From positions 806,001-870,000 of the forward strand of contig NZ_CP042808.1 of the NCBI RefSeq assembly GCF_004014775.2: 64,000 bases of DNA, read 5' to 3'. The position numbers and the translations under genes were made by a program. The notes beneath the pieces were generated by a model that was not told the DNA's origin, did not search any database, and saw only the letters and a list, made by a program, of their open reading frames with translations. The stretch comes from Acetobacter oryzoeni (GTDB lineage Bacteria > Pseudomonadota > Alphaproteobacteria > Acetobacterales > Acetobacteraceae). Shown in pieces: positions 16,418-46,501 of the stretch (position 1 is the first letter of the stretch; every line of letters starts with the position of its first letter).

Positions 16418-18736
16418 GTGGCTTCTGAAGAGATCATAGATCCCACAGTCCAACACGATGCTTCTGTCCGAAGAGTTCTGCTGCATCTTGTTCTACCCTT
16501 TGTTGTTACGGTTATGGCCGTGCTGGCCATTGCGCTGGTAGGTGTCAATTCATACCGTACCACCAAGGAGGGTGTTTCTACCCTTACGCACCAGCTTATG
16601 GGTGCTGTGCAGCAATATATTGTGCAGCAGGTTACAGATTACATTCTGCCAGCCGCTACCGGTAACCTGATTGCCTCTGGCATGATCGAACATGCCCCTG
16701 CGCAGGTGGAAGACAAGGTTTTCTATTCCTACGGCAGCACCATGCTGCGCAAGATCCCGCAGCTTCAGTCCTTTTATCTGGCGGATGATGAAGGGCATTT
16801 CATGCTCATCGCCCGTGCAGCGCAAAAGGGCGTGCAGGAACATGTGCGTCTGATTGAAAAAAACGGCCACACATATTTCCATCATGCGTTCTGGGATGAT
16901 AGCGGGCAGAAAATTTCCGAAACGGAAGAAGATGCCAAGGGGTATGACCCACGCACGCGTGATTGGTACAAGAATACAGCCGGAACAGATAAGGTAACAT
17001 GGACCAAGCCGCATCTGTTCCCCACCACCAGCCAGTTTGTCATGACCAGTTCCTTACGGTTCAAGACAGATGCTGGCCATACAATGGTGTTTGCGACCAA
17101 TATTTCGCTCAACGAACTCAGCTCGTATCTGGATCAGATCAAGGTTGGTAAGACCGGCTCCGCTATGATTGTGGATAGCCGGGGCCTGTTTATTGCCGGC
17201 AAAAATCTTACGCAGCAGGCCAAGGCCGCCGGGTGGGACCCGGATAAAATGGTGCTGGACCGCAAAGCCTACCCGGTGTTTGCATTGGGGTATGATCACT
17301 ACCGTGTGCGTGGTGTTGGGCCGCGGCATGTTACGTGGGATGGCACAGATTACATCACCATTGCCGCAGCTTTGCCGCGCTATTCTGATAGCTGGATTTT
17401 GCTGATGGCCGCTCCCGAAAGTGATTTCGGGTCCTTTGCACGCCAAAGCAGCCACCAGAGCTTGCAGTTTTTGGCCATTATCACGGTTTTCTCGCTTGTG
17501 CTTGCAGGGTTGCTGGTGCGGCAGGTGCGGCGCACAGAGTCCAGCACGCGCCTGTTGGTGAAGCAGAAAGAGCAGATTCAGCGCGAAAGTTCTGCTGTGC
17601 AGCAGGTGGCCGTTGCCCCGCGTCTGTTTGACCCCACTGTGGAACCCCTGAGCCTGACAGAGCAGCTAACGCTTGTAACAGGTGCCCGGCGTGCCACGCT
17701 TTGGCGCTTTTTGCACGATGGTGCGGCAATGGTGTGTGAAGATGCGTATGACCAAACGCAAAACACACATTCCGGCGGGTTTGAAATGGCCCGTACAGAA
17801 CTGGGACCATTCTTTTCCGCCATTGAAGAAGGCAATGCGTTCTCGGTTGAAAATGCAGCCGTAGATCCGCGCACCACGCGGTTTGAACGTTTGACCATGC
17901 GTGAGTTGGGCACAAAGGCATTGGCCGTTTGCCCCGTACATGGCCCGCATGGGGTGGAAGGTGCGATCATGCTGGAAGATCCGCATCTGCAGCCGCATCT
18001 GCTGTACTTCCTTGATCTGATGGCCGGCGTGGCCGCCCTGCGTTTTGCGGCACAGGCACAATTGCTGAATACGCAAACTGGCAAGATTGTAGATGCCGGG
18101 CAGCAGGTGGCTACGCTGGATGTGCCCGCGCCCAAATCTGATAATATGCTGATGAAGGCGCCAGAAGCCGCTGCCGTTACATCTGCCAGCATTTATCCAT
18201 CTGTTGCTGTGTTGGTCATCACGTTCTCTGATCCCGTGGTGGAAGGGGAAAAAGAAACTGAGGCCCTGATTGCACTTATCAATCAGCTGGCGGCAGATGT
18301 GCAGTCCGTCGCGCAGGAAGAAAAACTGTTTGCCGTGGAAGTGGCCGGCCACCGTATGATCTGCATGGCAGGCTGTCTGCCCACGCCAGATGTTACGGCC
18401 ATTGTGCGCGTTGCAGATGCTGCACTTAAAATGCGTGAAATCTTTATGGCATCACTGGCCGCAGCAGATCTGGAGCCGGTGTTTACCATGGGTATTGATT
18501 ACGGCCCGGCATTTGGTGGTGCGGTAGGGAACGAACCCAAGGTGTTTAACCTGTGGGGGCAAACGGTCTCTCTGGCCGAGCTGATGGCACAGGGCGCGGC
18601 AGACCCCGGCACCATTCAGGTAACAGAGCGTGTTTATGGCGTGCTGCGTGACAGATACCTGTTCCGTAGCCGTGGGTCCTTCTTTGCGCCGCATCTGGGG
18701 CTGGGGCGTGCCTATACATTGGCGGCAAGGCGATGA
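16418..18736 (+). CDS. Membrane receptor with Cache, GAF and degenerate adenylate-cyclase-like domain
   Basis: A 772-residue protein starting at GTG. Residues about 20-43 and 350-367 are membrane helices flanking a periplasmic double-Cache sensor (for example DPRTRDWYKNT at 178-188). A GAF domain covers about 410-548 and a class III nucleotide cyclase-like domain about 594-771. In the last, NLWGQTVSLAELM (711-723) aligns with the family's LWGDTVNLAARM: the base-recognising D is Q715, the transition-state N is S718 and the R is L722. Both metal-binding aspartates also appear lost (T602 and H645). It is therefore probably a pseudo-cyclase that senses rather than makes a nucleotide. Its stop overlaps the MlaE-like gene by four bases, tying it to the transporter. 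Confidence 0.8.
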   Translation: MASEEIIDPTVQHDASVRRVLLHLVLPFVVTVMAVLAIALVGVNSYRTTKEGVSTLTHQLMGAVQQYIVQQVTDYILPAATGNLIASGMIEHAPAQVEDKVFYSYGSTMLRKIPQLQSFYLADDEGHFMLIARAAQKGVQEHVRLIEKNGHTYFHHAFWDDSGQKISETEEDAKGYDPRTRDWYKNTAGTDKVTWTKPHLFPTTSQFVMTSSLRFKTDAGHTMVFATNISLNELSSYLDQIKVGKTGSAMIVDSRGLFIAGKNLTQQAKAAGWDPDKMVLDRKAYPVFALGYDHYRVRGVGPRHVTWDGTDYITIAAALPRYSDSWILLMAAPESDFGSFARQSSHQSLQFLAIITVFSLVLAGLLVRQVRRTESSTRLLVKQKEQIQRESSAVQQVAVAPRLFDPTVEPLSLTEQLTLVTGARRATLWRFLHDGAAMVCEDAYDQTQNTHSGGFEMARTELGPFFSAIEEGNAFSVENAAVDPRTTRFERLTMRELGTKALAVCPVHGPHGVEGAIMLEDPHLQPHLLYFLDLMAGVAALRFAAQAQLLNTQTGKIVDAGQQVATLDVPAPKSDNMLMKAPEAAAVTSASIYPSVAVLVITFSDPVVEGEKETEALIALINQLAADVQSVAQEEKLFAVEVAGHRMICMAGCLPTPDVTAIVRVADAALKMREIFMASLAAADLEPVFTMGIDYGPAFGGAVGNEPKVFNLWGQTVSLAELMAQGAADPGTIQVTERVYGVLRDRYLFRSRGSFFAPHLGLGRAYTLAARR

Positions 18737-19629
18737 GTGGGAGCCAGCAGACAGGCGGCCCCAACACGCCGTCGGATGATGAACCAGATCTGATTCTGCA
18801 AACAGATGCGCACAAGCCCGCCAAGCGCGTTCCGTTGCATGAATGGATACGCAGGAAGCTGGCATGGATCGGCCGGCTTGTGCGTAGGCAGGCCCGGTTT
18901 TTTCTGGTTGTTCTGGGGGCAGGCTGGGGCGTTATTTTTGAGAGCTTCCGCTCTCACGCATGGCGCCGCACCGTGCGGTACGAATTTGTAACCACCATGA
19001 ACAACATTATCGGCGGTGGTGTTAGCGCTTCACTGTTTGCCGGTATGCTTACAGGTGTGGCGGCTGTTTCTCAGGTCATTTACTGGTTGGGTCTTACGGG
19101 CCTTGCCAAAATGACAGGCTCCATTCTGGTAAATGTGGTTATCCGTGAAATTGCGCCCATTCTGGTCGGTATTCTGCTGCTGGGGCGCAATGGCATGCTG
19201 TCTGCCACAGAGCTGGGGCTGCTGACCATTGGTGGGCAGGTGCGCTCCATGCAGTCTGTGGGGATGGACCCGTTCCTGATGCTGGTGCTGCCACGCACGC
19301 TGGCGTTTACCGTGGCCGGGTTTACGCTGGGTATTCTGTTCTCCATGTCATCGCTGATAACCGGGTATGTGATGAGCCGTATTTCCGGCGTGATCACCAA
19401 CCCGATCTGGACATTTCTGGATGATGTGGCTGCGGCCATGTCTGTCACGGATTATGCCGTTATTCCGCTTAAGTTCATCATGGTTGGTTTTGTGGTGGGG
19501 CTTGGCGGCTGCCTGACGGGCCTGACCGCCACCAACGAAGATTCACTGCGCACCTTGCTGCCACGCGGTTTTTCCCGCGGGATGCTGATTGTGATGATGG
19601 TGAGCGTTCTGTTCAGTCTGGATCTGTAA
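18733..19629 (+). CDS. MlaE-type ABC permease
   Basis: A 298-residue inner-membrane permease of the MlaE/YrbE family, the membrane core of MCE phospholipid transporters. The first 60 residues are polar, then about five or six hydrophobic helices follow. The conserved core EIAPILVGILLLGRNGM, ATELGLLTIGGQVRSMQSVG and MDPFLMLVLPRTLA matches the family's LAPVLTGLL...AELGTMRVTEQIDAL...VPR region, though the coupling segment differs from the usual MRVTEQ. It overlaps the receptor gene by four bases and is one base ahead of the ABC protein. The altered coupling segment fits with a degenerate partner ATPase. Confidence 0.86.
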   Translation: MSGSQQTGGPNTPSDDEPDLILQTDAHKPAKRVPLHEWIRRKLAWIGRLVRRQARFFLVVLGAGWGVIFESFRSHAWRRTVRYEFVTTMNNIIGGGVSASLFAGMLTGVAAVSQVIYWLGLTGLAKMTGSILVNVVIREIAPILVGILLLGRNGMLSATELGLLTIGGQVRSMQSVGMDPFLMLVLPRTLAFTVAGFTLGILFSMSSLITGYVMSRISGVITNPIWTFLDDVAAAMSVTDYAVIPLKFIMVGFVVGLGGCLTGLTATNEDSLRTLLPRGFSRGMLIVMMVSVLFSLDL

Positions 19630-19630
19630 G

Positions 19631-20332
19631 ATGGAGACGTATTCAGCAGGCCCACTTCTGGAACTGAATAAGGCAGTGCCCTCATTTGAGGATAGCGGCT
19701 TGCCGCCAGTGCCCTTCAACATGAAGCTGATGCCCGGCGAATGTATGATTGTGGAAGCGCGAGACCCAAGCCGCGCCACCATGTTTGCAGATTTGTGCAG
19801 CGGCATGGTGGAATTGGAAAGCGGGCAGGTCAGCTTTATGGGGCTGGATTGGGCCAACCTGCAGGATCGGGAGCTTAACGCTCTGCGCGGGCGTATCGGG
19901 CGCATTACCCGCCGCGCCAGTTGGGCGGAGTTTATGCCCACACATCTGGGTATTATTTTGCAGCAGTTGCACCACACCACCCGCACTTTGGATGATCTGG
20001 TGGCAGAGGCTGTGCGGCGTTCAGAAAGTTTTGGTCTGCCGGGTGTGCCCACGGTCAGCCCATCCCTGCTTTCAGATACGGATCTTACGCGCGTTTCATG
20101 CGTGCGGGCTTTTATGGGGCAGCCGCATCTGCTGCTTTTGGAAGACCCGCTGGAGGGTGGCCCGCCCGAACTGTACACCTCTTTCCTGTCTTCAATTACA
20201 GAAGCGCGGGATAGAGGGGCAGGCGTAATCTGGCTGGTGCGCAGCAATGCCGTTTGGCAAAGTTACCGGCAGGGTATTACCTCCACATGGCGTCTTGCTG
20301 ATGATGGCCTAGTAGCAGTACGGATGGCATAA
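19631..20332 (+). CDS. MlaF-position ABC protein with all catalytic motifs degenerate
   Basis: A 233-residue protein with the fold pattern of an ABC nucleotide-binding domain (PGECMIVEARDP...SGQVSFMGLDW), positioned between MlaE and MlaD genes exactly as MlaF is. The motifs are lost: Walker A reads EARDPSRATM (42-51), with alanine for the lysine at 49. The Q-loop position reads TRR (93-95). The signature region is SDTDLTR (148-154) instead of LSGG. Walker B ends LLLLED (167-172) instead of DE. The D-loop is GGPP and the switch histidine is R204. The reading frame is open and coupled to both neighbours, so it is not a decayed pseudogene. ATP hydrolysis is not expected; a scaffold role is inferred. 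Confidence 0.83.
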   Translation: METYSAGPLLELNKAVPSFEDSGLPPVPFNMKLMPGECMIVEARDPSRATMFADLCSGMVELESGQVSFMGLDWANLQDRELNALRGRIGRITRRASWAEFMPTHLGIILQQLHHTTRTLDDLVAEAVRRSESFGLPGVPTVSPSLLSDTDLTRVSCVRAFMGQPHLLLLEDPLEGGPPELYTSFLSSITEARDRGAGVIWLVRSNAVWQSYRQGITSTWRLADDGLVAVRMA

Positions 20333-21282
20333 TGTTCCAGCTCCGCTTAAGACAGAAAGTGAAACCTCTTATTTCTCTGCGTTATGCAGATGAATGGGTT
20401 GGATTTCTTGTTCTTCTCAGCCTTGTTATTTTTGCAGGCGCGGTGATTGAAGCCGGCGTGCTGCGAGATTGGCTTACCCCACCTGCGCGCTTGCGTGTGG
20501 TGCTGCCAGCTTCTGGCGTGGGTGGCCTTACGGTTGGGGGCGATGTGCAGCTTATGGGTGCCCATGCCGGCACCATTCGTTCCATCAAGCTCAACCCATC
20601 GGGCAACATGTATGCCTTGGTGGATCTGGACCCGCAGGCCAAGCCATTTATCCGGCGTGATAGTTCGGCCATTATCCGTAAACAGCTTATTGTAACCGGC
20701 GCCGCTTATCTGGACCTCAGCCGTGGGCATGGGGAGCCTATGGATTGGAGCTACGCTGTTGTAAGCGCAACGCCAGCCCCCAACCCGGCAGACCAGATTA
20801 CCGCCACGCTTAACAGTATTCAGGCAGAAATTATGCCCGCACTGGCAAGTGCGCGGCATATGATGGCGCAGCTTGATGGCACCATTAGCGATATGCACGC
20901 AGGCAAAGGCACCGTTGGGCAGTTGATGACGAATGATCAGCTGATCAAACAGGCCGAAGCTACCATTGTTTCGCTCAATGGGGTGATTGACCGTCTGAAA
21001 CCGATTGAAAACCAGATTTCCGGCATCATGAACAAAACCGATGCCACGGTGGCAAACCTGAAAGGGGCCTCGCGCGATCTGAAGGGGGCCACACCGCATC
21101 TGCCGGGTATTGCGGCTAATCTGGATGCCAGCACCGCAGATCTGCCAGCATTGCTGGCGCAGGCGCAAACCACACTTTATGGGCTGGAAAAACTAACAGA
21201 CCAACTGCGCGGCATGTGGCTGCTGGGGGGGCAAAAAGTGGTACGGCATAACCGTCTGTCACCAAAGCAGGTGCGGCCATGA
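20332..21282 (+). CDS. MlaD-like MCE domain protein
   Basis: A 316-residue protein with one N-terminal membrane helix (about residues 22-44, WVGFLVLLSLVIFAGAVIEA) followed by a single MCE domain, recognisable from LRVVLPASGVGGLTVGGDVQLMG and AGTIRSIKL. Such proteins form hexameric rings in the periplasm that bind phospholipids for transfer between membranes. Residues about 150-290 are helical with low-complexity spacing (TLNSIQAEIMPALASARHMMAQL), as in MCE proteins that form a needle or tunnel. The start codon shares one base with the preceding stop. It completes an MlaE-F-D core; MlaB and MlaC are not present here. Confidence 0.85.
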   Translation: MFQLRLRQKVKPLISLRYADEWVGFLVLLSLVIFAGAVIEAGVLRDWLTPPARLRVVLPASGVGGLTVGGDVQLMGAHAGTIRSIKLNPSGNMYALVDLDPQAKPFIRRDSSAIIRKQLIVTGAAYLDLSRGHGEPMDWSYAVVSATPAPNPADQITATLNSIQAEIMPALASARHMMAQLDGTISDMHAGKGTVGQLMTNDQLIKQAEATIVSLNGVIDRLKPIENQISGIMNKTDATVANLKGASRDLKGATPHLPGIAANLDASTADLPALLAQAQTTLYGLEKLTDQLRGMWLLGGQKVVRHNRLSPKQVRP

Positions 21283-22217
21283 GGTATTTTTCTTCCGCTG
21301 CGGCTGTTTTGTGCCTGCCTTTACTGCTGGCCGGGTGCGGTGGCGCTGCACAGGATAAACCCACCGCGCAGGATGATGCCGCGTGGGATCAGGCCATGAC
21401 AGCCGGGCGAGATTCCTTTGAGCTCGGGCGTTATACCGTAGCCGTTACGCAGTATCGCAAAGCCGCAGATCTGGCTTTGCTGCGGGATGATGTAAGCGCG
21501 ATAACCGAGGCCGGGTATGATCTGGCCGTGGCGCAACTGGCTGCAAACACGCCGGATAAAGCGTTGCAAACAGCACAGGCCACACGGCAGGCCGCCGGTG
21601 TGCGTGGGCAAACGCAGCTTTATTCGCTTGATCTGGTAGAGGCTGCTGCCCATTACAGGTTGGGCCATTACAGTTCGGCCATATCATCTGCCACGCAGGC
21701 TATGCAGTCATCCGATAGTGCTTTGGCAGGCAGGGCGGCTTTGGTGCTGGGGCTGGCGGCAGATGCGCAATCCGATAGCGCCAATCTGCAAAAAGCTGCG
21801 GCCTATCTTGGCAGCCTTAAAAAGCCGCTTTCTGCCACGCAGCAGGCAGATCAGGCGGAAATTCAGGCCCGTGTATTGCGCCAATCCGCACCACAGCAGG
21901 CAGAAGCCTTGGCCGTGCAGGCAGCAGATCTGCGGCGTAACGATGGATCTTACCGTGATATGGCACGTGCACTGGCACTTGCTGCGCGCATTGCTTCTGC
22001 TCAGGGTGATCAGCAAAAGGCCCGTGCGTTGTGGGAGCGTGCAGCACAAAGTGCAGCAGCGCAGTCTAGCGGCTTGAACCGGATGGATGCGCAAACACTG
22101 GCGCATGGTTCCATCAACAAAGGCAATTACGTACCGCCTGAAGATGAAGCCGCTGCATGGGCGCGCGATGCCGGGGGTGTGTCCCTCCGTCCGTTTGAAG
22201 ATAAAGACGCACAGTAA
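21279..22217 (+). CDS. TPR-like lipoprotein of the Mla-type operon
   Basis: A 312-residue lipoprotein: LPLLLAGC gives a lipobox with the modified cysteine at residue 20. The rest is alanine- and glutamine-rich helical sequence with TPR-like pairs such as SFELGRYTVAVTQYRKAADL and HYRLGHYSSAISSATQAM. It overlaps the MCE gene by four bases, so its product probably joins the same envelope complex, possibly at the outer membrane side. It is not the ABC-type auxiliary lipoprotein (PqiC/MlaA type) usually found with MCE operons; I know no named family for it. Confidence 0.72.
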   Translation: MRYFSSAAAVLCLPLLLAGCGGAAQDKPTAQDDAAWDQAMTAGRDSFELGRYTVAVTQYRKAADLALLRDDVSAITEAGYDLAVAQLAANTPDKALQTAQATRQAAGVRGQTQLYSLDLVEAAAHYRLGHYSSAISSATQAMQSSDSALAGRAALVLGLAADAQSDSANLQKAAAYLGSLKKPLSATQQADQAEIQARVLRQSAPQQAEALAVQAADLRRNDGSYRDMARALALAARIASAQGDQQKARALWERAAQSAAAQSSGLNRMDAQTLAHGSINKGNYVPPEDEAAAWARDAGGVSLRPFEDKDAQ

Positions 22218-22233
22218 AACGTGTAAGGCGTAA

Positions 22234-23622
22234 GTGGCTGGGGCAATGCAGCGGAACCTGATGATTGCACGCTGTGGTGCCCATTCCCTGCACCCGGAAT
22301 GGCTGAAAGGGGGCGCGCCAGAATGGGATCTGGTTTTATGCCCCTTTCAACCGGTGGATATGCAGGGCCATACCGGCCAGATGGTGCCGGGCCATAAATG
22401 GGATGGCCTGTATCGTTTTCTAACAGAATGGGATGGCTGGAAGCAGTACGACTATATCTGCTTCCCGGATGATGATCTGCGCGCCACGGCAGAAACGTGG
22501 AACCGCTTTTTTGCAACCTGCAAACAGTATAACGCCAAATTGGCAGCGCCGGCGCTTACCCCGGGTTCTTTCTGTAGCCACCTTTCCACATTGCAGAATA
22601 CAAACTTTGTGGCCCGTGCCTCTACATTTGCAGAAATCATGGCCCCTTGCATGCAGCGGGATTTTTTGCATCAGGCACTGCCAACTTTTCGCTTTTCACG
22701 CGCAGGCACAGGGTTCGGGCTTGATCTGCTGTGGCCCATGATGCTGGGTTGGCGCGATATATGGATCATGGATGCCACCCCGGTAGAACATACACGCCCG
22801 GTAGGGCAGCAGCGCTCTTCCGCATTGGGGGAAATCAGCCAGTATGATTTTCGTTTTATAGCGGGTTTGGGCGTTGTGGGGGCTACGTGGTCTTACAGTG
22901 GATATACCCCACAGGGCACGTATCTGGATTATCGTGATAGCTGTTTTGCCGAACTTTATCGGCAAGGTTATGCCTATGTGCAGCAGCACTATCCGCAATA
23001 TTGGGCGGAGGTTTGTGCGTTTCAGCCCAGCGCACCCCCGCAGGTAAGTGCGCAGGCGCTTGATAAGCTGGAACAGGCCTTGTTTCATTTAAACAAGGAT
23101 ACCGGGAATATTCTTTCTCGCCATCGGCCAGCCATGTTGTCCACCGTATCTCAATGGTCATGGTCTCATGATGCCGCGCGTGAAGCCTCTGGTGGCAACG
23201 ATGGGCTGATAAACGGCGGCTATGGTTTTCATACAGATTTTGAAGATGATCCGTGGTGGCAGGTTGATCTGGAGCAGATGTGCAACGTGCAGGAAGTTGT
23301 GCTGTACAATCGGCTGGATCAGAAAGAATGCTGTGTGCAGCTGAATATTCTTGTTTCTCATAATGGCACGGATTGGCGCACGGTTTTTGCCAAACGGGAT
23401 GATACGCATTTTGGCGGGGCGGATTCCCAGCCTTTGCGTGTGGTTTTGCCCAAACCTGTTATGGCGCGTTTTGTGCGTGTGCAGGCGCTTGGGCACACGG
23501 TGCTGCATCTGGATCAGGTAGAAGTGATAGGCGCGCGCGGCAGTATGAGAGCGCAAAACGGTTTTTTTGAAAAACTTATCTATAAAACCACACGTTTTCT
23601 AAACGCGCGGCGTTCTGAATAA
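22234..23622 (+). CDS. DUF707-like protein with C-terminal discoidin (F5/8 type C) domain
   Basis: A 462-residue protein without signal peptide. The N-terminal part (about 1-270) resembles the DUF707 group, which looks glycosyltransferase-like: a DxD-type triplet in YICFPDDDLRA, and GFGLDLLWPMML. The C-terminal part (about 290-455) has the features of a discoidin/F5-8C carbohydrate-binding domain: WSWSHDAAREASGGNDG, DPWWQVDLEQ, VVLYNRLDQ and ARFVRVQALG. The GTG at 22234 or the ATG at 22246 could be the start. It follows the lipoprotein gene by 16 bases and is probably the last gene of the operon; its link to lipid transport is unknown. Confidence 0.7.
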   Translation: MAGAMQRNLMIARCGAHSLHPEWLKGGAPEWDLVLCPFQPVDMQGHTGQMVPGHKWDGLYRFLTEWDGWKQYDYICFPDDDLRATAETWNRFFATCKQYNAKLAAPALTPGSFCSHLSTLQNTNFVARASTFAEIMAPCMQRDFLHQALPTFRFSRAGTGFGLDLLWPMMLGWRDIWIMDATPVEHTRPVGQQRSSALGEISQYDFRFIAGLGVVGATWSYSGYTPQGTYLDYRDSCFAELYRQGYAYVQQHYPQYWAEVCAFQPSAPPQVSAQALDKLEQALFHLNKDTGNILSRHRPAMLSTVSQWSWSHDAAREASGGNDGLINGGYGFHTDFEDDPWWQVDLEQMCNVQEVVLYNRLDQKECCVQLNILVSHNGTDWRTVFAKRDDTHFGGADSQPLRVVLPKPVMARFVRVQALGHTVLHLDQVEVIGARGSMRAQNGFFEKLIYKTTRFLNARRSE

Positions 23623-23762
23623 AAGCGTGGCATTTTATTATGTTTTTTATGGGAACTTGCAGGGGTTCCATGCAGAAATGTTGAGGCACACTCAAGCTGT
23701 GCCGTGTATCACCGCACTATAGGGCGCATCCCCATACCGGGCCGGTGCGTGGAGCGGTGATT

Positions 23763-24779
23763 ATGAAAAGACTATTGCGAAGGTACAGAAAGAAAAGCCA
23801 GCTTGATAAGGAAATTCGCCACACGCCGCTGGAGGATGTGGGCGGATCTTCCACAGCGCAGAAAAAGAAGGAAGGCGGGCGTTTTTCCTTAAGCACGCGT
23901 GAAGCCGCCAAGCGTTTTAGAGCCCACGCGCTGGTGGAAGAAAAAGGCCACCACGATGTTGTGCGTGTGGGGCTGAAAGATAGCGTATGGACAGATCTGT
24001 ACCATCACGCCCTGACAGCAAGCTGGCCTGCATTTACGGCTGTGGCTGTGTTTTCTTACCTGCTTATCAATTTTATATTTGCGCTGCTGTATATGGTCGC
24101 ACCAGACCAGATTACGAGTGATAGCCAGCATACGTTGCTTTCACTGTTCTTTTTCAGTGTGCAAACACTTTCCACCGTGGGTTACGGGGGCATGACACCC
24201 GTAGGCATTTACGCCAATGCCATTGTCTCATTGGAAGTGTTTATCGGCATGATGCTGACAGCCGTGGCAACGGGGTTGCTCTTTGCCCGTTTTGCCCGGC
24301 CGCGTGCGCGTATCATGTTCAGTAATACCGCTGTTGTCAGCAGTGAAAGTGGTATTCCCGCGCTGTGTATTCGCATTGCCAATTTGCGTGTCAGCGTCAT
24401 TCTTTCTGTGGATGTAGAAGTAGCGCTTTCCCGCTTGGTTATGGGGGAAAATGGGCATCTGGTGCGCAAGTTTGATCAGCTCTTGCTTGTGCAGTCTCAT
24501 GTGCCAGTGTTGCGGTTTGCTTTTGTTATGGCGCATGTGATCGGGCCGGACAGCCCCTTACACGGCAAGACAATGGCAGAACTGGAGGCCGAAGAAGCCG
24601 AAATTATTGTAACAGTGACCGGCACGGATGAAGCCTTGGGCCAAACCGTATTTGCCAGAACGGCTTACAGGTTTGACCGTGTGCGCAATAACCATCGGTT
24701 TGTAGATATTGTGGTGTCCCGCCCTGATGGTCGCATTGCCGTGGATTACACACGCTTCCATGATGTAGAGCAGCACTAA
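23763..24779 (+). CDS. Inward rectifier-type potassium channel (KirBac)
   Basis: A 338-residue inner-membrane channel. Two transmembrane helices (about 90-111 and 151-172) flank a pore helix and the selectivity filter TVGYG at 138-142, preceded by FSVQTLS. The C-terminal 165 residues form the cytoplasmic immunoglobulin-like Kir domain (RPRARIMFSNTAVVSS, LCIRIANLRV, VVSRPDGRIAVDYTRFHDVE). The basic N-terminal tail (RLLRRYRKK) is longer than in most KirBac proteins. ATG 23763 is favoured by GGAG at 23751-23754. It is convergent with the first FUSC gene, only five bases apart, and likely transcribed alone. Bacterial Kir channels pass K+ and are gated by lipids and ligands. Confidence 0.93.
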   Translation: MKRLLRRYRKKSQLDKEIRHTPLEDVGGSSTAQKKKEGGRFSLSTREAAKRFRAHALVEEKGHHDVVRVGLKDSVWTDLYHHALTASWPAFTAVAVFSYLLINFIFALLYMVAPDQITSDSQHTLLSLFFFSVQTLSTVGYGGMTPVGIYANAIVSLEVFIGMMLTAVATGLLFARFARPRARIMFSNTAVVSSESGIPALCIRIANLRVSVILSVDVEVALSRLVMGENGHLVRKFDQLLLVQSHVPVLRFAFVMAHVIGPDSPLHGKTMAELEAEEAEIIVTVTGTDEALGQTVFARTAYRFDRVRNNHRFVDIVVSRPDGRIAVDYTRFHDVEQH

Positions 24780-24784: not shown

Positions 24785-26989
24785 TTAGGCTGCCAGCCGG
24801 TCTGGGGCGTTGGTAAGATGAAAGCGCCGGGTTACATCCATAAATGTGGCATGGGCTGTAAACTCATGCCGCAAGACTTCCAGCGCCCCGATGGCCCGCA
24901 CAAGATCTATTTGTTGAGAGAGATTTCGTTCTGCCATGGCAGCCGGTAACAGGGCCTGCATGGCTTGGGCAGAAGCAAGGGCAGGAGCCTGCGTGTAGCC
25001 TTTTATGTGGCTGATTGTTTCCAATACATGTGTAATCTGCTGGCATTGATTGGCAGATAAAAGCTTGTGAGACAGCACATTGTGCAGGCGCAAAATCAGC
25101 AGGCCGGTTGTCATCGCGCTCATGGCGCCTGTCAGATAGGCTTCCACCAAAGCGTTTGGATGGGTGCCAGCATGGCGAATAATCTGGGCTAGCCTATCGC
25201 CCGAACGGGCAATCCACTGGGCAGATGTAAAGGTCATGCGGCCTTTGGCCATCAGGCGCAGATCACGCACCATTCTGCGGCGGAGCCTCCACCGTTCTCC
25301 TGCAGGATCAAACGGCAACACAAGGCGGAAAGCCCATATCCCCAGCCCAATACCCAGAACAACAGCGGGGGTGGTGTTAAACCACGTTATTTCATCCATG
25401 CGGGTGTGGTTGGCTGGCCCCACCATAAAGGGCAGGAAGTTATTATAGGCCGCCGCTGTGCCTGCAATGCTGCCTGGGGCACGTAAGGCCAGCCCGCCCA
25501 CCAGCATGGGAAAAAAGAGTGATGCCAGCAGAGTTTCCACCCCAGATTGCTGAGGCAGTACCACAAAGCTGAGAATGAACGAAATAACAGCCGCCCATAC
25601 CGCGCCACGGAAAAAGCCGCTGGCCGCATGTACCGGGTCTTCAAATGAAGAAAAGCGTGTGGTGGTTACAGCCACAAACATGGCAAGGGTAGAACCATCG
25701 GGCCATGCTGTTACTTCCCATAACAAGCCACCTGCGCAAATGGCAGCTGCAGAGCGGATGCCATTATTGGTGGCCAGCAGCACATCTTTTTCAGGGTGAC
25801 GGTCAAATCGAAAGTGGTCGGCTCTGCTGGGGGCTTGGGTGGCAATAAAGTGTTCCAGAACGAGGTCTAGTTCCATCAGCAGTTTGGCGAGGGCAGATTC
25901 CAGAATACGCCCTTCCAGCAGGTCGCGCCGTTGCTGCTGGGTGGCGGGCGCATCCTGCTGTTGCAGGAGTTGAAACCGTATGAGCCTCTCAATGCCGCGT
26001 TGTTGGCTGCGGGTGCGGTAAAGCCGGATTTGCGCGCGCGCCCGTGTGGCAGAGCTTATGGTGGCATCTTGTTCCAGCTCTGCCGGTAAGGAGGTGAGAA
26101 GCGCGCAAATATCATCAATAGCCTGCTGGAAGTCTGGCGGTACGGGGGCGGCGGCCTGCATGTGAATATGCAGTGTCATCCCACGGGCCAGAAAGGCAGA
26201 AACGGCATTCAGGCTGGCGCGTGCGTGGTCTCCCGCATGGTTGTGGGGGCCCATTTCAATTTCACTGAATTCTGTCTGATCTGCCAGTGAAGGAATACTT
26301 CCCAACAAGGCGCGGGAGCGTAACAGCCCATCGGGCTGGTTGCGCAACAGCCCTTGCACACCTGCACATGCTCCTTGTAGCGCGCCCAGTAGGCGCTCTC
26401 GCATTTCCTGTTGGGCCACGTGTTCAAGGCGCGGGGCAAACAGGGCGGCCAGCAGGCTTTCACACACAATACCCAGCGTAATGTAAGTGGTGCGGGAAAG
26501 CGCAATCATAAACACGTTGTCGGGCTGATTAGCTGCGCTTAGCACAATAATGGTGGTGGTGAAGGACACCAGAACCAGCGCGTAAGACCGAAAGTTGCGC
26601 AGGAATGTTGCAATGGCACAGCAACCACCTGCCCATAGGGCAAGAAACGGAAAAACAAGCCCCGGCTCCTGCGGAAGCGCAGCCAGAAACGCAATGCCGG
26701 CTACTGCGCCAATACAGGTACCAATTAATCGCCATTTGGCTTTGGAAAGACTTTGCCCGCGAGAGTTCTGAGCCACAATCCATGTGGTCATGGCGGCCCA
26801 TTGGGGGCTGTCCATTTCCATCCACAGGGCCAGGCTTAAGGCAATAAAGGCCGCTACGGTGGTGCGGAGGGCAAAGCCCAGATCAGCCGGGGCCGGGGCA
26901 ATCAGCCATGCCAGCGGAAAGGATGAGCCGCTGTGTATTCTGGCATGCAGGCCGCGATACCACTGTAATGGAAATGAAAATGAAACCAC
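24785..26989 (-). CDS. FUSC-family membrane transporter, copy 1
   Basis: A 734-residue protein of the fusaric acid resistance/aromatic acid exporter group (AaeB/YccS-like). An N-terminal block of about six helices begins LGFALRTTVAAFIALSLALW, followed by the family motif DSPQWAAMTTWIVAQ and SKAKWRLIGTCIGA. A long soluble part (about 190-390) and a second helical block with ITAWPDGSTLAMFVAV-like sequence follow. The start is a GTG. The family exports aromatic acids or related toxic compounds; no adaptor gene lies beside it. It is transcribed after its paralogue at 27101, from which a terminator separates it. Confidence 0.87.
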   Translation of the reverse strand: MVSFSFPLQWYRGLHARIHSGSSFPLAWLIAPAPADLGFALRTTVAAFIALSLALWMEMDSPQWAAMTTWIVAQNSRGQSLSKAKWRLIGTCIGAVAGIAFLAALPQEPGLVFPFLALWAGGCCAIATFLRNFRSYALVLVSFTTTIIVLSAANQPDNVFMIALSRTTYITLGIVCESLLAALFAPRLEHVAQQEMRERLLGALQGACAGVQGLLRNQPDGLLRSRALLGSIPSLADQTEFSEIEMGPHNHAGDHARASLNAVSAFLARGMTLHIHMQAAAPVPPDFQQAIDDICALLTSLPAELEQDATISSATRARAQIRLYRTRSQQRGIERLIRFQLLQQQDAPATQQQRRDLLEGRILESALAKLLMELDLVLEHFIATQAPSRADHFRFDRHPEKDVLLATNNGIRSAAAICAGGLLWEVTAWPDGSTLAMFVAVTTTRFSSFEDPVHAASGFFRGAVWAAVISFILSFVVLPQQSGVETLLASLFFPMLVGGLALRAPGSIAGTAAAYNNFLPFMVGPANHTRMDEITWFNTTPAVVLGIGLGIWAFRLVLPFDPAGERWRLRRRMVRDLRLMAKGRMTFTSAQWIARSGDRLAQIIRHAGTHPNALVEAYLTGAMSAMTTGLLILRLHNVLSHKLLSANQCQQITHVLETISHIKGYTQAPALASAQAMQALLPAAMAERNLSQQIDLVRAIGALEVLRHEFTAHATFMDVTRRFHLTNAPDRLAA

Positions 26990-27044
26990 GCAGCCAGATG
27001 CCCCAGATTGAAGATGTTGTTATAACAATTTCTTGAGCATCTGA

Positions 27045-27078
27045 CAAAAAAAGAGCCGGAACAAAAGCCCGGCTCTTT
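27045..27078 (-). terminator. Intrinsic terminator downstream of FUSC copy 2
   Basis: AAAGAGCCGG at 27050-27059 is complementary to CCGGCTCTTT at 27069-27078, with a nine-base loop. Read on the minus strand, the stem is followed by a run of T (A-run at 27045-27052 on the plus strand), just past the stop of the gene at 27101. It is a good rho-independent terminator and implies that the upstream FUSC copy 1 gene has its own promoter. Confidence 0.85.
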
Positions 27079-27100
27079 AACAGCTTGATTTGAAGGATGT

Positions 27101-29287
27101 TTATACAGCGCGATAGGGCTTGGAGGCATCCAAAAACACGGCGTTGGCGTCCAATTCGTGCGAGACCACAATTAGATATGCAATTGCGCGTGTCAGTTCG
27201 ATACGGGTGGAAATATTGGGTTCCATGGCTTCCATGCGGCGCAGGGCAGATGTTGCAACCCGTGCAGCGTGTGCCGTGTGGCCATATTTACCTGTAAAGC
27301 GGCTCATACGTTTCATAACAATTTCGATGGCGCGCTTGGCTGGTGGCGGAATCTGGTTGCGCTTCAGCAGCATACGCAAACGGATAATATTCAGCCCGAT
27401 GGTCATGGCTGCCAGTGTGCCCTGCAAACACCCTTCAATAGTGGGGGAAGGCGTGGGGCCAGCATGGCGGATTAGGCGGGCAAACCTATCAATATTGCGG
27501 CCAATCCAGTCTCGCGTTTCGGGCATGGGCTCGGCCGATGCCAATGTGCGCAGATCATGCAGCATGGTGCGGCGCATGCGCCAGCGTTCTGCATTATTGT
27601 TAAAGGGCAGCACGGCCCGGAAAATCAGCACAGCAAAAAACACGCCCAACAACACAGCCGCAGTGGAGTTAAACCACGCCACTTCGTTCTGCCGGCCTTG
27701 GTTGAGCGGATGCACAAAGTTGGGCAGCAGCAGCGTATAGGCCGCAGAATGCAGTGCTGTGCCAGCATTACGGGCAGCAAGGCCGCCGGCAATCATGGGC
27801 AGGGCGAGTGAGCCCACCAGCATTTCGTAATCTGCCTCTGTGGGCAGTACAAGAAACACCAGAAAGAATGAAACAATAGCCGCCCATATGCCACCCACCA
27901 TGAATTGTGAAGAGGCAACAACAGGGTTTTCTCGGGTTGCAAACAGCCCGCAAACAATGGCCACAAAGGTAATAAAGCCCAAACCAGCGGGCCACGCCGT
28001 ACACTCCCACACCAGCCCGGCAGCCGTAATGGCCACCATGGCACGCACGCCATTATAAACGGCTTCGCGCTTATCTACGTGGGCTTGCAGACGGAAGTGG
28101 AAGTGATCCCCACGGATAAAGTGCTGGCTGGCATCATATTCCCGGATAGCCTGTTCCAGTTCACCCAGCAGTTCATCCAGTGCGTTGTGCAGGATGCGGC
28201 CATCCAGCAGGGCGGGAATATCTGTATCGTTTGCGGGGTTGTCATCAAACGCCGTGTCAATTTCCTGCGAAAGCGCATCCACCACACGTTGATGGCATTC
28301 AGCGCGCAGTAATTGCAGATCATGCAGCAATTCCTGCACGCTTTCATCGGAATCCAGCCGGTTGGGAACGGTTGTCAGAAACTCGCTCACATGGGCTGCG
28401 GTCTCGCGGAAAGCGGGCTGGTCTGTCTGCACATATTGCAGGCGCACAGCCATACCCAAACCGCGCGAAAGCAATACGGAAACCGCAGCCAGTGCGGCAC
28501 GCGCGTGGTCCCCTTCATGCCCGTGCGGGCCCATTTCCACTTCGGAAAACTCGATCTGGTCATTAATCGAAATCAGCGGGCCAAACATGGCGCGGGAACG
28601 CACCAGAGCTTCCTCATCCCCCGCCAGCAGGCTGGAAACCGAGGTGGACACGTTGGAAAGTGCTGTGCGCAGTTTATCGCGCATGTTGCGGCGTGCTGTT
28701 TCTGCCAGATTATGGGCAAACAGGCCTGCCAGCGTGCCCTCACACACAATGCCCAGCACAATGTAAGATGCGCGGGACATGGCTGTCATAAACACGTTTT
28801 CTGGGTGCGGAATGGCGCCAATGGCAATAATGGCGGTGGTATAACCGGCCAGCACCAGTGCGTAGGAACGAAAGTTACGCACCAATGTGGCCATGGTGCA
28901 GCATACGCCAACCCAGATGGACAGAATGGGGAAGAACAGCCACGCATTCTGGTTAAAGGCCGAAATAAGGGTAATGGACATCACCACCCCTATGGCCGTG
29001 CCCACCAGACGCCATCGGGCTTTGGAAAGACTTTCCCCGCGGGAGCCTTGGGCCACAATCCAGACAGTCATGGCGGCCCATTGTGGGTCATCCAGTTCCA
29101 TCCACAGGGCAATCACCAACGCCAGAAGGGCTGCGGCCGTGGTGCGCACGGCAAAACCGATAGCGGCAGGGGTGGGGGAGATCAGCCAAGCAAAGGGCAT
29201 TTTTCCGCGTTCACCCGGCCTGTGCAGGGGGCGGAAATTGCGCAGGGGGCCGATCCGGTCAAGGATAAACAGAGGGAGACTGGGCAC
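27101..29287 (-). CDS. FUSC-family membrane transporter, copy 2
   Basis: A 728-residue FUSC/AaeB-like protein clearly paralogous to the one at 24785: it shares AWLISPTPAAIGFAVRTT, ELDDPQWAAMTVWIVAQ and SLSKARWRLVGTAIG at the same relative positions. Two helical blocks flank a soluble domain. A GTG at 29287 gives an N-terminal extension; an ATG 29 codons in (29200), with GCGGA upstream, is an alternative start. The product is likely an exporter of aromatic or organic acids, a plausible trait for an acid-producing organism. Divergent from the YidB-like gene across 241 AT-rich bases that should contain both promoters. Confidence 0.86.
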   Translation of the reverse strand: MPSLPLFILDRIGPLRNFRPLHRPGERGKMPFAWLISPTPAAIGFAVRTTAAALLALVIALWMELDDPQWAAMTVWIVAQGSRGESLSKARWRLVGTAIGVVMSITLISAFNQNAWLFFPILSIWVGVCCTMATLVRNFRSYALVLAGYTTAIIAIGAIPHPENVFMTAMSRASYIVLGIVCEGTLAGLFAHNLAETARRNMRDKLRTALSNVSTSVSSLLAGDEEALVRSRAMFGPLISINDQIEFSEVEMGPHGHEGDHARAALAAVSVLLSRGLGMAVRLQYVQTDQPAFRETAAHVSEFLTTVPNRLDSDESVQELLHDLQLLRAECHQRVVDALSQEIDTAFDDNPANDTDIPALLDGRILHNALDELLGELEQAIREYDASQHFIRGDHFHFRLQAHVDKREAVYNGVRAMVAITAAGLVWECTAWPAGLGFITFVAIVCGLFATRENPVVASSQFMVGGIWAAIVSFFLVFLVLPTEADYEMLVGSLALPMIAGGLAARNAGTALHSAAYTLLLPNFVHPLNQGRQNEVAWFNSTAAVLLGVFFAVLIFRAVLPFNNNAERWRMRRTMLHDLRTLASAEPMPETRDWIGRNIDRFARLIRHAGPTPSPTIEGCLQGTLAAMTIGLNIIRLRMLLKRNQIPPPAKRAIEIVMKRMSRFTGKYGHTAHAARVATSALRRMEAMEPNISTRIELTRAIAYLIVVSHELDANAVFLDASKPYRAV

Positions 29288-43237: not shown

Positions 43238-46200
43238 TTAAAAAATCCGGCGCAGCGCCCCGGGCAGGAAGATGGAATAGGGGTTTACGTGCAGGGACGG
43301 ATTGTTCATCTGCCCAGCCACGCCAAACGTTACGGCAACAAGCCCGCCATCTTTTTCCGGGCTGAACATCCAGCCAATGCCCGGCAGCTTTCCGGGTAGT
43401 TTGTTAATGGCAAAAATAGGCACCACAGTGCCGCGTAAATCTATGCTGTTCTTATCCAGATTTACGTCGCCTTCAAGCGTTGCGCCCAGCGCGTTGTTGC
43501 CGGTTCTGCCATCGTGAATATTCAGCACGCCATCTTTGAAGGTTACGGGTAGCACAAGGTGTGTCACCATGAATTCCGATGTCTTGTGCGCTGCCAGCCA
43601 ACCGTAAAACGAAATATTTCGTGCCATACGCAAGGCCGTTGGGGCTTTTTTAAGCACAAATGGCGTAACCGTTATGCGGCCATTAAACGGGGCAGAGGCC
43701 TCTGTATCATCAAAAGATCCGCTAAGAACGGCATGGCCGCCTTCAATATCTGGCAGAATGTTAAAGTCAGACAAAAATGCGCCCATGTCCGGGATGGAAA
43801 CGCGCAGGTCTCGCCCCGCACCTTTGGGCGTAAGTGTCATGCTAACGGGGGTTGGCCCGTGCATGGCAAAGTACATTTTTTCCAGCCGCTGACCGTTATC
43901 CTCAAAATAGGCTTTAACAGCTTTTAAGGAGGGCTTTTCCGGGTTGTAGCGCAGTGTGTTGGCTGTCAGGTCAATCGCCCAAGCTGTTCCCGGCGGGCCG
44001 TGCAGTTTGCCTGTTGCAGCCTCTGGCACATGGTAGCCAGTGCTGGCGGGCTGTGCGGGTTTGGGGTCTGATGGATCACCCGTCACCAAAGGGGAAAGGT
44101 CTAGCATGTCTGCATATACGCCAACATGAATGACCGAGCCCGTTACACCTTTTTGCGGCAGTTCCAACATGGCGTGGCCGGTGGAATTGGCTACGCGGAA
44201 GGAAGATATAATCAGTTGGGGGGCATGGTTGGGGCGCAGGCGGGCCTTGCCGCGCACATCCAGATCCGGCCCAGTGGCCAGAATACGATCTACCGCAACA
44301 ATCTGGCCATTCTTTAGCCCCAGCGTGGCATTGGCCTGCGCTGCACGGCCCGGTGCCTTGTGCCACAGTGGAATACGGATTTGGGAGTTCTTGAGGTTGA
44401 GGTTGATATCCACCAGCCCGTGGTGATCTCCATACTGGCGATAATCCACCACAGCATCAGCCGAACCACCAAAGTGGTCTCCCGTTGCAAAACCAGCGGC
44501 TGTTGCGGTTTGCGGCGTGATGCGAGATGTCAGATGCGCCTGTTCTAACAGCCCGGTGGGCGGCACCTGCCGGAAATCTGTTGAATAGGAGATATTGGAG
44601 GGCAGGCCACCTAATACACCATGCCCGGCAAGGGAAAGGCCATCTGCCGTGGCATCCAGCTTGATATCAGCACGTCTGACACCACGCCCAGCCACCACAT
44701 TATCAAGCGATGCCTGTGTAATATCGGCATGGCCCTTAATTTCCATGTCATCAATGCTGACATCGTCTTTCAAGGGTAGGCTGAGCATGAGCTGAAGTTT
44801 GGCGCGCCCGCGCGGGTTACGAATATCCAGCGGGTGGCGGGCAAGCAGATGCAGGCGTGGTTCGGCCAGAAGGGACATAACATCCTGCAACTTGCCATCC
44901 AGCTGCGTGTTGATAATGCCGGTCTGGTCTTTTTTGGTCAGGCCCACAATGTCCATGCTGCCGGGGCCTGCGGCAATGCGGCCCGTGCCATTTTGGCCCA
45001 CATTTTTGCCAGCACGGTCAACAAGCTGATAGCCGTGGTCAAACTTGATGCTCAGCTTGTCCAGTCCATCCACGTCCATATGGGCGTCCATACCCCGAAG
45101 CGGAGAAATGGGCCGCAGCCAGTGGATGGTCAGCCCCTTGGCATCTAGCCCGCCAGCAATGTTGCTAACATCCACACCATTCCAGCCCGTTTTGCTGGAT
45201 AGGGAAACAACGGTGTGCAGGTTGTAGGCCACACCATCTGTAATGTTTTTGGTTACCCACTTTTTGCCGCCCTTGGCCGCCTTGTCTGGCCAGTAATAAA
45301 CCAGATCAGGAAAGTACACCTGCGGAATATCGGCAGTAACCTGTCCGGAAACGGTGGTGGGGTTTATCAGATCCGTGGCATCCACTTGCCCGGATACGGC
45401 CAGATTAAGCCCTCTGGATTCATCTTCCGGAAGGTCTGGATTGCGCAGGTTTGCGGTAATGTTATGGACAATAATATGCGCAGGTGTGCTGCCATCCTTA
45501 AGATGGTCCAGCCGTAGGGTAATATTGGCAGAACCACCGTTTAAAAAGTAACGCGCCCCGGCGGCGGTTACCTTGCCGCTTTGTGCATCTGCATGCAGGT
45601 CCATTGCTCCCGGCATCAGCCAATCCGAACCCGGCGCAGGCAGGAAATTGACATCAGACGTAACCGCTATAGGCGTTCTGATGTGTTGCAGATCATGCGA
45701 GATATGGGAAAAGCTGGAAGGCTTAACGGCATTGGTTGCCAGATGCCATGTAATGCCCTTGCCATCTGAATCTGGCAGGCTGTTGGCTTTTACCTCTATG
45801 TGGCAATCAGGGTTTTCTTCCCCCGTTACGGCAAATTGCACGGCACCTGTCAGGCCCTTTTTGCCTTGGGCCGAGGCCATATGCAGCGTGGCATCTAGCG
45901 GAGAAGCTACCCAGTGCGTGCCAGTTAACTGGTCATTCATGCGCACAATGGCGTGGGAGATAACGGCACGGTCCAGCCCGGCGGTATCTACGCTTCCGCT
46001 ATCACTTGCCCCAGCAGAAGGCGGGGTATCAAAATCAAACCCCACAGCCCCGTTTTTGCCGCGGCGGAGGGCAAGGTTTACGCCTTCCAATTCCACTGCG
46101 CGCAGGGCAATGCCGCCGTGCACCAAGGCTAGTGTATCCAGCGTAACGTGGGCCTCATGCACGGTATCAACAACTGTGCGGTCCGGCCCTTTAACCGCAA

Positions 46201-46501
46201 TATCCTGCAGAACAAGCATGAGCGGCGATGTAAGGCCATCGCGCATACCGTTCCATTCCAGATAAGCGCGGCTAAGCCCCAATGTGGCAACAGGAGGCTG
46301 CTTTTTGCCGCCAGAAATAACGGTAACAGGCAAAAAGGGGCGCGCCAGTGGCGTAACATTTACTGGCCCCAGCGCCATGCGCGCAAACAGCAAGGCTGTA
46401 CCCACAAGCGGCAGCCCAACCATGGCATAGGCACCATAGACCAGAAATCGCCGGGTTTTTGTGCGCCGTGGGCGCGTGGTGTCTTGACCGTTGGAAGTCA
46501 A
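43238..46501 (-). CDS. AsmA/YhdP-like giant envelope protein
   Basis: A 1087-residue protein with one N-terminal membrane helix (RFLVYGAYAMVGLPLVGTALLF-like, about residues 18-40) and a very long periplasmic beta-rich region. The C-terminal stretch (PFNGRITVTPFVLKKAPTAL, GDVNLDKNSIDLRGTVVP, GQMNNPSLHVNP) is typical of AsmA-like C-terminal and DUF3971 domains. Proteins of this group form long grooves bridging inner and outer membrane for phospholipid transfer. It is divergent from glnE and ends convergently with the exported proteins. It is not part of the Mla-like operon, but may serve a related lipid role. Confidence 0.8.
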   Translation of the reverse strand: MTSNGQDTTRPRRTKTRRFLVYGAYAMVGLPLVGTALLFARMALGPVNVTPLARPFLPVTVISGGKKQPPVATLGLSRAYLEWNGMRDGLTSPLMLVLQDIAVKGPDRTVVDTVHEAHVTLDTLALVHGGIALRAVELEGVNLALRRGKNGAVGFDFDTPPSAGASDSGSVDTAGLDRAVISHAIVRMNDQLTGTHWVASPLDATLHMASAQGKKGLTGAVQFAVTGEENPDCHIEVKANSLPDSDGKGITWHLATNAVKPSSFSHISHDLQHIRTPIAVTSDVNFLPAPGSDWLMPGAMDLHADAQSGKVTAAGARYFLNGGSANITLRLDHLKDGSTPAHIIVHNITANLRNPDLPEDESRGLNLAVSGQVDATDLINPTTVSGQVTADIPQVYFPDLVYYWPDKAAKGGKKWVTKNITDGVAYNLHTVVSLSSKTGWNGVDVSNIAGGLDAKGLTIHWLRPISPLRGMDAHMDVDGLDKLSIKFDHGYQLVDRAGKNVGQNGTGRIAAGPGSMDIVGLTKKDQTGIINTQLDGKLQDVMSLLAEPRLHLLARHPLDIRNPRGRAKLQLMLSLPLKDDVSIDDMEIKGHADITQASLDNVVAGRGVRRADIKLDATADGLSLAGHGVLGGLPSNISYSTDFRQVPPTGLLEQAHLTSRITPQTATAAGFATGDHFGGSADAVVDYRQYGDHHGLVDINLNLKNSQIRIPLWHKAPGRAAQANATLGLKNGQIVAVDRILATGPDLDVRGKARLRPNHAPQLIISSFRVANSTGHAMLELPQKGVTGSVIHVGVYADMLDLSPLVTGDPSDPKPAQPASTGYHVPEAATGKLHGPPGTAWAIDLTANTLRYNPEKPSLKAVKAYFEDNGQRLEKMYFAMHGPTPVSMTLTPKGAGRDLRVSIPDMGAFLSDFNILPDIEGGHAVLSGSFDDTEASAPFNGRITVTPFVLKKAPTALRMARNISFYGWLAAHKTSEFMVTHLVLPVTFKDGVLNIHDGRTGNNALGATLEGDVNLDKNSIDLRGTVVPIFAINKLPGKLPGIGWMFSPEKDGGLVAVTFGVAGQMNNPSLHVNPYSIFLPGALRRIF

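What the first reader, a model, noticed from the sequence alone, without database searches (positions are those of the whole stretch)
16418..23622. Candidate undescribed system: receptor plus Mla-like transporter built around two pseudoenzymes
Six co-directional genes are joined by overlaps of 1-4 bases or gaps of 1-16 bases. They encode a pseudo-cyclase receptor, MlaE permease, pseudo-ATPase, MCE protein, TPR-like lipoprotein and a DUF707/discoidin protein. The usual companions MlaB, MlaC and MlaA are missing. I know of no description of such an assembly. The inferred picture is a sensor-gated envelope lipid conduit whose energy source is not encoded here.
Basis: inference. Interest (0 to 1): 0.88.

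Follow-up and report, generated by a model that had tools for sequence, protein, structure and literature searches.

The report
Receptor-linked lipid transporter with dead ATPase
Acetic acid bacteria and some unrelated bacteria share a five-gene set that looks like a machine for moving lipids between their two membranes, but its ATP-burning motor has lost its catalytic residues and a sensor protein is built in next to it, which suggests a lipid channel worked by a sensor instead of by ATP.

Summary
Receptor, MlaE permease, ABC-like protein, MCE protein and TPR lipoprotein occur in the same order and strand in 115 of 120 fetched loci from Acetobacteraceae, other Alphaproteobacteria, Chromatiaceae and Desulfobacterales; four of the five exceptions are cut by contig ends and one is decayed. 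The DUF707/discoidin gene is in 0 of 120.

The ABC-like protein is a conserved pseudo-ATPase: 0 of 121 sequences have a Walker A motif. Its model is a confident ABC ATPase fold, and dN/dS is 0.006-0.135 in 12 informative pairs of 13. The receptor's cyclase-like domain looks dead too: 0 of 117 keep the four catalytic residues examined. All 46 of 150 genomes with the pseudo-ATPase have the receptor; the two other receptor genomes are cut at contig ends.

Best reading: a receptor-gated, ATP-independent MCE lipid conduit. The conserved system is shown; the gating is inferred. Ten paper searches found no description. PqiABC and LetAB are precedents for MCE machines without an ATPase, but with a different membrane protein.

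The parts
16418..18736 (+). Receptor, 772 aa: periplasmic dCache_1 between two predicted TM stretches, GAF, C-terminal class III cyclase-like domain without its catalytic residues
   Evidence: Pfam; PDB sequence hits to MCP Cache domains and adenylate cyclases; residues across 117 rows; TM stretches read by eye from the sequence
18733..19629 (+). MlaE-type permease, 298 aa; region aligned to the coupling helix kept (GRxG...E160xG)
   Evidence: PF02405; A. baumannii MlaE alignment; conservation
19631..20332 (+). Pseudo-ABC ATPase (pABC), 233 aa; no Walker A, no LSGG, Walker B and H-loop altered, no MlaF-type C-terminal extension
   Evidence: AF2 model pLDDT 92.9; ABC NBD fold
20332..21282 (+). 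Single-MCE-domain protein, 316 aa, with a long C-terminal part
   Evidence: PF02470; TIGR00996 match over residues 27-282, below that model's cut-off (46.5 against 140.5 bits)
21279..22217 (+). TPR-type lipoprotein, 312 aa, lipobox LAGC with Cys20
   Evidence: lipobox search; AF2 model pLDDT 87.7 all-helical; TPR folds
22234..23622 (+). DUF707-like/discoidin protein, 462 aa: a neighbour, NOT part of the conserved unit
   Evidence: F5/8C; homologues with PF05212; absent from 40 of 40 and 80 of 80 loci

Best explanation
The five genes make one machine: a trans-envelope MCE lipid conduit worked by a receptor instead of by ATP. MlaE and the MCE ring sit in the inner membrane, the long C-terminal part of the MCE protein reaches through the periplasm, and the TPR lipoprotein anchors or receives it, probably at the outer membrane. 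The pABC takes the place of MlaF under MlaE but cannot run an ATPase cycle; it serves as an adaptor. The receptor's periplasmic Cache domain senses a ligand, and its pseudo-cyclase is a protein-protein output that acts on pABC and so sets the state of MlaE, letting lipid flow downhill or closing the path. SHOWN by sequence: the conserved five-gene unit, co-occurrence of receptor and pABC, loss of catalytic residues in both pseudoenzymes, purifying selection, ABC fold of pABC (model), lipobox. INFERRED: complex formation, docking of receptor on pABC, gating, downhill flow, lipid as cargo, the periplasm-spanning needle, outer-membrane place of the lipoprotein.
Against: No experiment and no complex model. 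Two MlaE genes with intact ATPases are present in the same genome, and all 46 cassette genomes have 2-4 MlaE matches, so an ATPase could be borrowed. An acidic residue stays at the Walker B positions (E171 in 116 of 121). The C-terminal extension is also shorter in Veillonella MlaF (PMC10665443), so its lack alone does not mark a dead ATPase. The pseudo-cyclase could act on something other than pABC. Lipid as cargo is argued only from MlaE/MCE homology. Besides the decayed L075, four genomes (loci L042/L137, L052, L128, L156) have genes of the unit split over two frames: sequencing errors or decay.
Confidence: 0.45

Rival explanations
1. Borrowed motor: pABC pairs with a normal ATPase (MlaF or MpcF) from elsewhere in the genome, or is swapped for it, and the receptor regulates this exchange.
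For: Own genome has two intact MlaE-linked ATPases; all 46 cassette genomes have 2-4 MlaE matches.
Against: The pABC signature region is lost as well (Gly at positions 149 and 150 in 12 and 9 of 121), so both composite sites of a heterodimer would lack a residue set; pABC lacks the C-terminal extension that MlaF uses in its dimer handshake. The presence of other MlaE genes says little by itself, since 149 of 150 Acetobacteraceae have at least one. In G126, the genome with the decayed unit, all MlaE matches are weak (best 1.6e-30) and may be fragments.
Confidence: 0.15
2. Transporter turned sensor: the MlaE-MCE-TPR part no longer moves lipid in bulk but reports the lipid state of the envelope to the receptor, whose output goes elsewhere.
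For: A conserved receptor beside a dead motor fits a sensing complex.
Against: The receptor's own output domain looks dead too, and no output gene is conserved nearby across lineages (49 loci). The long MCE protein and the lipobox lipoprotein fit a conduit.
Confidence: 0.2
3. Non-canonical catalysis: pABC and/or the cyclase-like domain still binds or turns over a nucleotide by other residues.
For: Acidic residues stay at the Walker B positions (E171 in 116 of 121; position 172 Asp in 58, Glu in 17), a His lies at or beside the H-loop position in 12 of 121, and D605 stays in 93 of 117 receptor rows.
Against: P-loop lysine absent in every row with a letter there, P-loop glycines and signature lost; cyclase D645 kept in only 15, N718 in 15, R722 in 6 of 117.
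Confidence: 0.1
4. Decaying relic or chance gene neighbourhood.
For: One genome (G126, locus L075) has a broken copy of the unit, and four more have genes split over two frames.
Against: Order and strand conserved in 115 of 120 loci over several classes, with dN/dS well below 1.
Confidence: 0.02

Closest known systems
Mla system (MlaFEDB with MlaC, MlaA)
   Same: MlaE permease and MCE protein; the third protein has the ABC fold of MlaF
   Different: Dead ATPase without Walker A, signature or C-terminal extension; no MlaB in the unit; no MlaC in the locus; longer MCE protein; TPR lipoprotein; receptor gene included
Mpc (mpcEFDA, Brucella, Hyphomicrobiales)
   Same: Elongated MCE protein, MlaE-type permease and ABC-fold protein in one operon; proposed bridge between the membranes (PMC12436622, passages)
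   Different: Mpc has a STAS-bearing permease and a well-conserved ABC transporter; no receptor is mentioned in the passages seen. A locus with this layout is elsewhere in the same genome (L005), so the present unit is separate
PqiABC and LetAB
   Same: MCE machines without an ATPase; PqiC is an outer-membrane lipoprotein
   Different: Inner-membrane protein is PqiA/LetA, not MlaE; several MCE domains; no pseudo-ATPase or receptor known to me
Veillonella MlaEFD
   Same: Minimal unit without MlaABC, long MlaD as trans-envelope bridge (PMC10665443, passages)
   Different: Its MlaF closely resembles that of model diderms; no receptor or TPR lipoprotein in the passages seen
Class III adenylate/guanylate cyclase receptors
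   Same: Cyclase-like domain behind Cache and GAF domains
   Different: The four catalytic residues examined never occur together in 117 rows

Membership tests
Mla (MlaFEDB) lipid ABC transporter | MlaE-type permease | tested here: met
   PF02405 3.6e-32
Mla (MlaFEDB) lipid ABC transporter | MCE-domain MlaD protein | tested here: met
   PF02470 3.8e-11
Mla (MlaFEDB) lipid ABC transporter | ATPase with Walker A, signature, Walker B and H-loop | tested here: not met
   Walker A 0 of 62, 0 of 121; Walker lysine in none; direct comparison with the genome's own intact ATPases
Mla (MlaFEDB) lipid ABC transporter | MlaF C-terminal extension | tested here: not met
   at most 18 residues after the last profile column in 120 of 120; role of the extension from PMC7367683; a shorter one is reported for Veillonella
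Mla (MlaFEDB) lipid ABC transporter | MlaB STAS protein in the unit | tested here: not met
   no STAS match in the proteins of the unit at E<=1; no sixth neighbour conserved across lineages
Mla (MlaFEDB) lipid ABC transporter | MlaC periplasmic shuttle in the locus | tested here: not met
   not among the proteins of the locus; two copies elsewhere in the genome
Mla (MlaFEDB) lipid ABC transporter | MlaA outer-membrane lipoprotein | not tested
   not among the proteins of the unit; the genome was not searched for PF04333
Mpc | STAS domain on the permease | tested here: not met
   P0002 has only PF02405; the other locus, L005, has a weak STAS_2 match before its MlaE domain (0.0027, below cut-off)
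Mpc | Elongated MCE protein | tested here: met
   316 aa with one MCE domain at 55-132; MpcD is 331 aa
PqiABC/LetAB | PqiA/LetA inner-membrane protein | tested here: not met
   no such Pfam match; MlaE instead
Class III nucleotide cyclase | Metal-binding Asp pair and transition-state Asn and Arg | tested here: not met
   0 of 117 with all four; D645, N718 and R722 mapped by alignment to solved cyclases, D605 and the roles of the residues from recalled motif knowledge
dCache_1 amino-acid receptors | YxxxxRxWY motif with a later Asp (motif recalled) | tested here: inconclusive
   Y176, R181, W183, Y184 present in the window's protein; the position I took for the later Asp (228) is Asn in 85 and Asp in 27 of 114

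The most novel reading that the evidence does not exclude
A new class of ABC-fold transporter in which the ATPase pair has become a permanent, nucleotide-free adaptor and the driving conformational change comes from a periplasmic receptor through a dead cyclase: a ligand-gated, trans-envelope lipid channel made of ABC-transporter parts.
Probability: 0.35. Interest if true: 0.9.

Novelty: new variant of a known kind. Interest (0 to 1): 0.76.

Why it matters
MlaF loses function when its Walker lysine is changed (PMC7367683), yet here a whole protein family lacks that lysine and stays under purifying selection. If the gating reading is right, it shows how an ABC transporter can be uncoupled from ATP and placed under a sensor, and it makes testable the open question whether MCE conduits need energy or only a gate. 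It also gives a defined envelope system to study in industrial acetic acid bacteria.

Tried and rejected
Sixth member (DUF707/discoidin): rejected, 0 of 120 loci. PPK, PPX, Kir channel and FUSC neighbours: found only in Acetobacter loci among the 120, not part of the unit. A search for other conserved flanking genes in 49 chosen loci gave 14 ORF clusters present in 5 or more loci, none in more than 12 of 49; 13 hold no locus outside Acetobacteraceae and one holds three, at varied distances; some are probably spurious ORFs. An in-frame TGA reported for one genus: in the two loci looked at it is the stop codon at the gene's end. Structure of the TPR lipoprotein gave only TPR-type matches. A Gluconobacter paper with the words toluene tolerance (PMC9838050, one passage) was unrelated. 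A search for a genome with the unit as its only MlaE system found none among the 46: all have 2-4 matches, though in G126 all are weak.

Limits. The 40 unnamed and 80 named loci overlap (some are the same genomes); 109 distinct rows were left for the tree after dropping identical and incomplete ones. In one search, 117 candidate stretches were confirmed and only the best 80 were returned. Of the 46 genomes with pABC, 40 were fetched, the window's own is one more, and G032, G050, G054, G058 and G094 were not fetched: there receptor and pABC lie 0.8-0.95 kb apart by the coordinates, room for MlaE. Five of the 115 loci in order (L042 and L137, one genome; L052, L128, L156) have genes split over two frames. 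A lipobox was not found in 7 of 78 TPR proteins and in 4 of 33 in an earlier look at partly the same loci; the alignments in which the Cys is invariant were chosen among proteins with one. Of 83 pABC homologues, 62 were aligned. The pABC searches started from a pseudo-ATPase; the receptor search is the control for that bias. Class-level sampling used a strict E-value and scored at most 7 candidates a genome. Most of the Desulfobacterales, Deltaproteobacteria, gammaproteobacterial and some alphaproteobacterial loci are on MAG contigs. The tree is midpoint-rooted and the gamma/delta node has support 0.58. Paper searches: open-licence PMC papers only; I saw listings with abstract starts, and passages only of PMC7790496, PMC12436622, PMC9838050, PMC10665443 and PMC7367683.
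Full report
THE OBSERVATION. Pfam gives a dCache_1-GAF-Guanylate_cyc receptor, an MlaE permease, an ABC protein below Pfam's cut-off (17.1 against 25 bits), an MCE protein, a weak TPR protein and an F5/8 type C protein. DUF707 is not matched by Pfam in the last protein, but homologues of part of it carry PF05212. The window belongs to an Acetobacter-like genome: a same-genus genome (G030) has a contig of the same length, 754452, as that of the named locus L151, Acetobacter farinalis.

A FIVE-GENE UNIT. Searching 150 Acetobacteraceae genomes with the ABC-like protein gave a clean split: 46 genomes with E of 7e-23 or better, then a gap to 9e-11, where ordinary ATPases begin (my count from the listing). 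A second, overlapping sample of 120 genomes of the order, all Acetobacteraceae, gave 84 with E of 3e-37 or better and the next match at 5e-25 (my count from the listing). I fetched regions around 40 of the 46 hits and 80 named loci from one genome-collection scan. Receptor, MlaE, pABC, MCE and TPR lipoprotein are all present, in the same order and strand, in 115 of 120 loci; four of the other five (L113, L131, L150, L185) are cut by contig ends and one (L075) is decayed. Five of the 115 (four genomes) have genes split over two frames. The named loci include Acetobacter, Gluconobacter, Komagataeibacter, Gluconacetobacter, Novacetimonas, Azospirillum, Skermanella, Elioraea, Chromatiaceae and Desulfobacterales, one of the last on a 6.8 Mb chromosome record (L106). 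The DUF707/discoidin gene is in none of the 120. The flanking PPK, PPX, Kir and FUSC genes were found only in Acetobacter loci. No sixth neighbour is conserved across lineages in the 49 loci looked at. In 385 genomes sampled over the class, six had the protein at E<=1e-26, two of them outside Acetobacteraceae, so outside that family it is patchy. In the midpoint-rooted tree the gamma and delta loci nest among alphaproteobacterial ones.

CONTROL FOR SEARCH BIAS. Because the search began with a pseudo-ATPase, I searched the same 150 genomes with the receptor: 48 have it, including all 46 with pABC; the other two (G091, G108) are fragments at contig ends. In the 40 fetched genomes and, by coordinates, in the five not fetched, pABC lies beside the receptor. 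So no receptor of this kind was seen with a different ATPase where the contig allows a check.

THE PSEUDO-ATPASE. No Walker A motif is present in the 62 homologues aligned of 83 found or in any of 121 cassette proteins; the lysine position holds no Lys and is Ala in 85 of 121. Side by side, the genome's own two intact ATPases read GGSGSGKS and GGSGCGKS, [LI]SGGM, FFDEP and [TS]H[DE], where the window's protein has EARDPSRAT in the P-loop region, LSDTD, LLEDP and no His. In the family, the Walker B Asp position is Glu in 116 of 121, the catalytic Glu position is Asp in 58 and Glu in 17, and the H-loop position is His in 2, with a His one place on in 8. The protein also stops short of the C-terminal extension. 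In E. coli MlaF, K47A, E170Q and loss of that extension fail to complement (PMC7367683, passages). The family is not decaying as a whole: dN/dS of pABC is 0.006-0.135 in 12 of 13 species pairs (the thirteenth has dS 0.01), in the range of its four neighbours. It has its own conserved residues: R86, G87, I89, G90, H115 and R159 are invariant in 62 homologues and 93-100% in the 121. The AF2 model is confident (pLDDT 92.9) and is an ABC nucleotide-binding-domain fold. MlaE keeps its coupling-helix region (G151, R152, G154 and G177 at 96-100%, E160 85%).

THE PSEUDO-CYCLASE AND THE REST. Of 117 receptor rows with this region aligned, none has D605, D645, N718 and R722 together; D605 is kept in 93, D645 in 15, N718 in 15, R722 in 6. 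The MCE protein matches the mycobacterial MCE model over residues 27-282, though below that model's cut-off. A lipobox was found in 71 of 78 TPR proteins of the named loci. The model of the TPR protein is all-helical and TPR-like.

HOW IT MOST LIKELY WORKS. Permease plus MCE ring plus long MCE tail plus lipoprotein is the layout of a trans-envelope lipid conduit, as argued for Mpc and Veillonella MlaD (PMC12436622, PMC10665443; passages). The motor looks dead and no other motor is in the unit. The one conserved extra part is a receptor whose own enzyme looks dead, so its output is most simply conformational or by contact. The simplest joint reading is that the receptor moves pABC, and pABC moves MlaE. 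I give this 0.45; a borrowed ATPase 0.15; a lipid sensor 0.2; odd catalysis 0.1. Against my reading: all 46 cassette genomes have 2-4 MlaE matches (in G126 all weak), so a partner ATPase may be available; acidic Walker B residues persist; and no complex could be modelled here.

NOVELTY. It fails the Mla membership test at the ATPase and at MlaB and MlaC in the locus, the Mpc test at the permease, and the Pqi/Let test at the membrane protein. Ten paper searches, in open-licence PMC papers only, showed no description of an MlaE system with a pseudo-ATPase or a coupled receptor in the listings and passages I saw. I file it as a new variant of the MCE transport kind; if gating by the receptor is shown, it would be a new kind.

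Noticed in passing
G000:C1:2525000-2537000 (locus L005, 4923-8414): A second MCE locus in the same genome: permease with a weak STAS_2 match before its MlaE domain, intact ATPase, 318-aa MCE protein and an ABC_trans_aux lipoprotein: the layout of the Brucella Mpc system, outside Hyphomicrobiales.
   Followed up: partly
G000:C1 at 249235, 826494, 1101885, 2532008, 2552852-2553910: Five places with MCE domains in one 3.15 Mb genome, one of them a 582-residue frame with three MCE matches; MlaC-like genes at 234132 and 406846 lie apart from the MlaE-MlaF pair at 664k.
   Followed up: no
locus L075 (genome G126): Receptor, MlaE and MCE frames broken and the TPR gene reduced to fragments, while its genus mate G046 (L071) is whole; its best MlaE match is also weak (1.6e-30). 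Loss or sequencing frameshifts could both explain it.
   Followed up: no
loci L042/L137, L052, L128, L156: Genes of the unit split over two reading frames in otherwise ordered loci; sequencing errors or recent decay.
   Followed up: no
window 43238-46501, -: Large protein with a YhdP match below Pfam's cut-off (2.1e-10, 39.6 against 46 bits), another lipid-transport family, beside a GlnE-type gene on the other strand.
   Followed up: no
window 23745-24779 + and 24785-29287 -: Inward-rectifier-type potassium channel (IRK_C) next to two FUSC-family genes; among the 120 loci this neighbourhood recurs in Acetobacter only.
   Followed up: no
window 22234-23622: DUF707-like/discoidin protein; several of its long relatives also carry methyltransferase domains (PF13578).
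   Followed up: no
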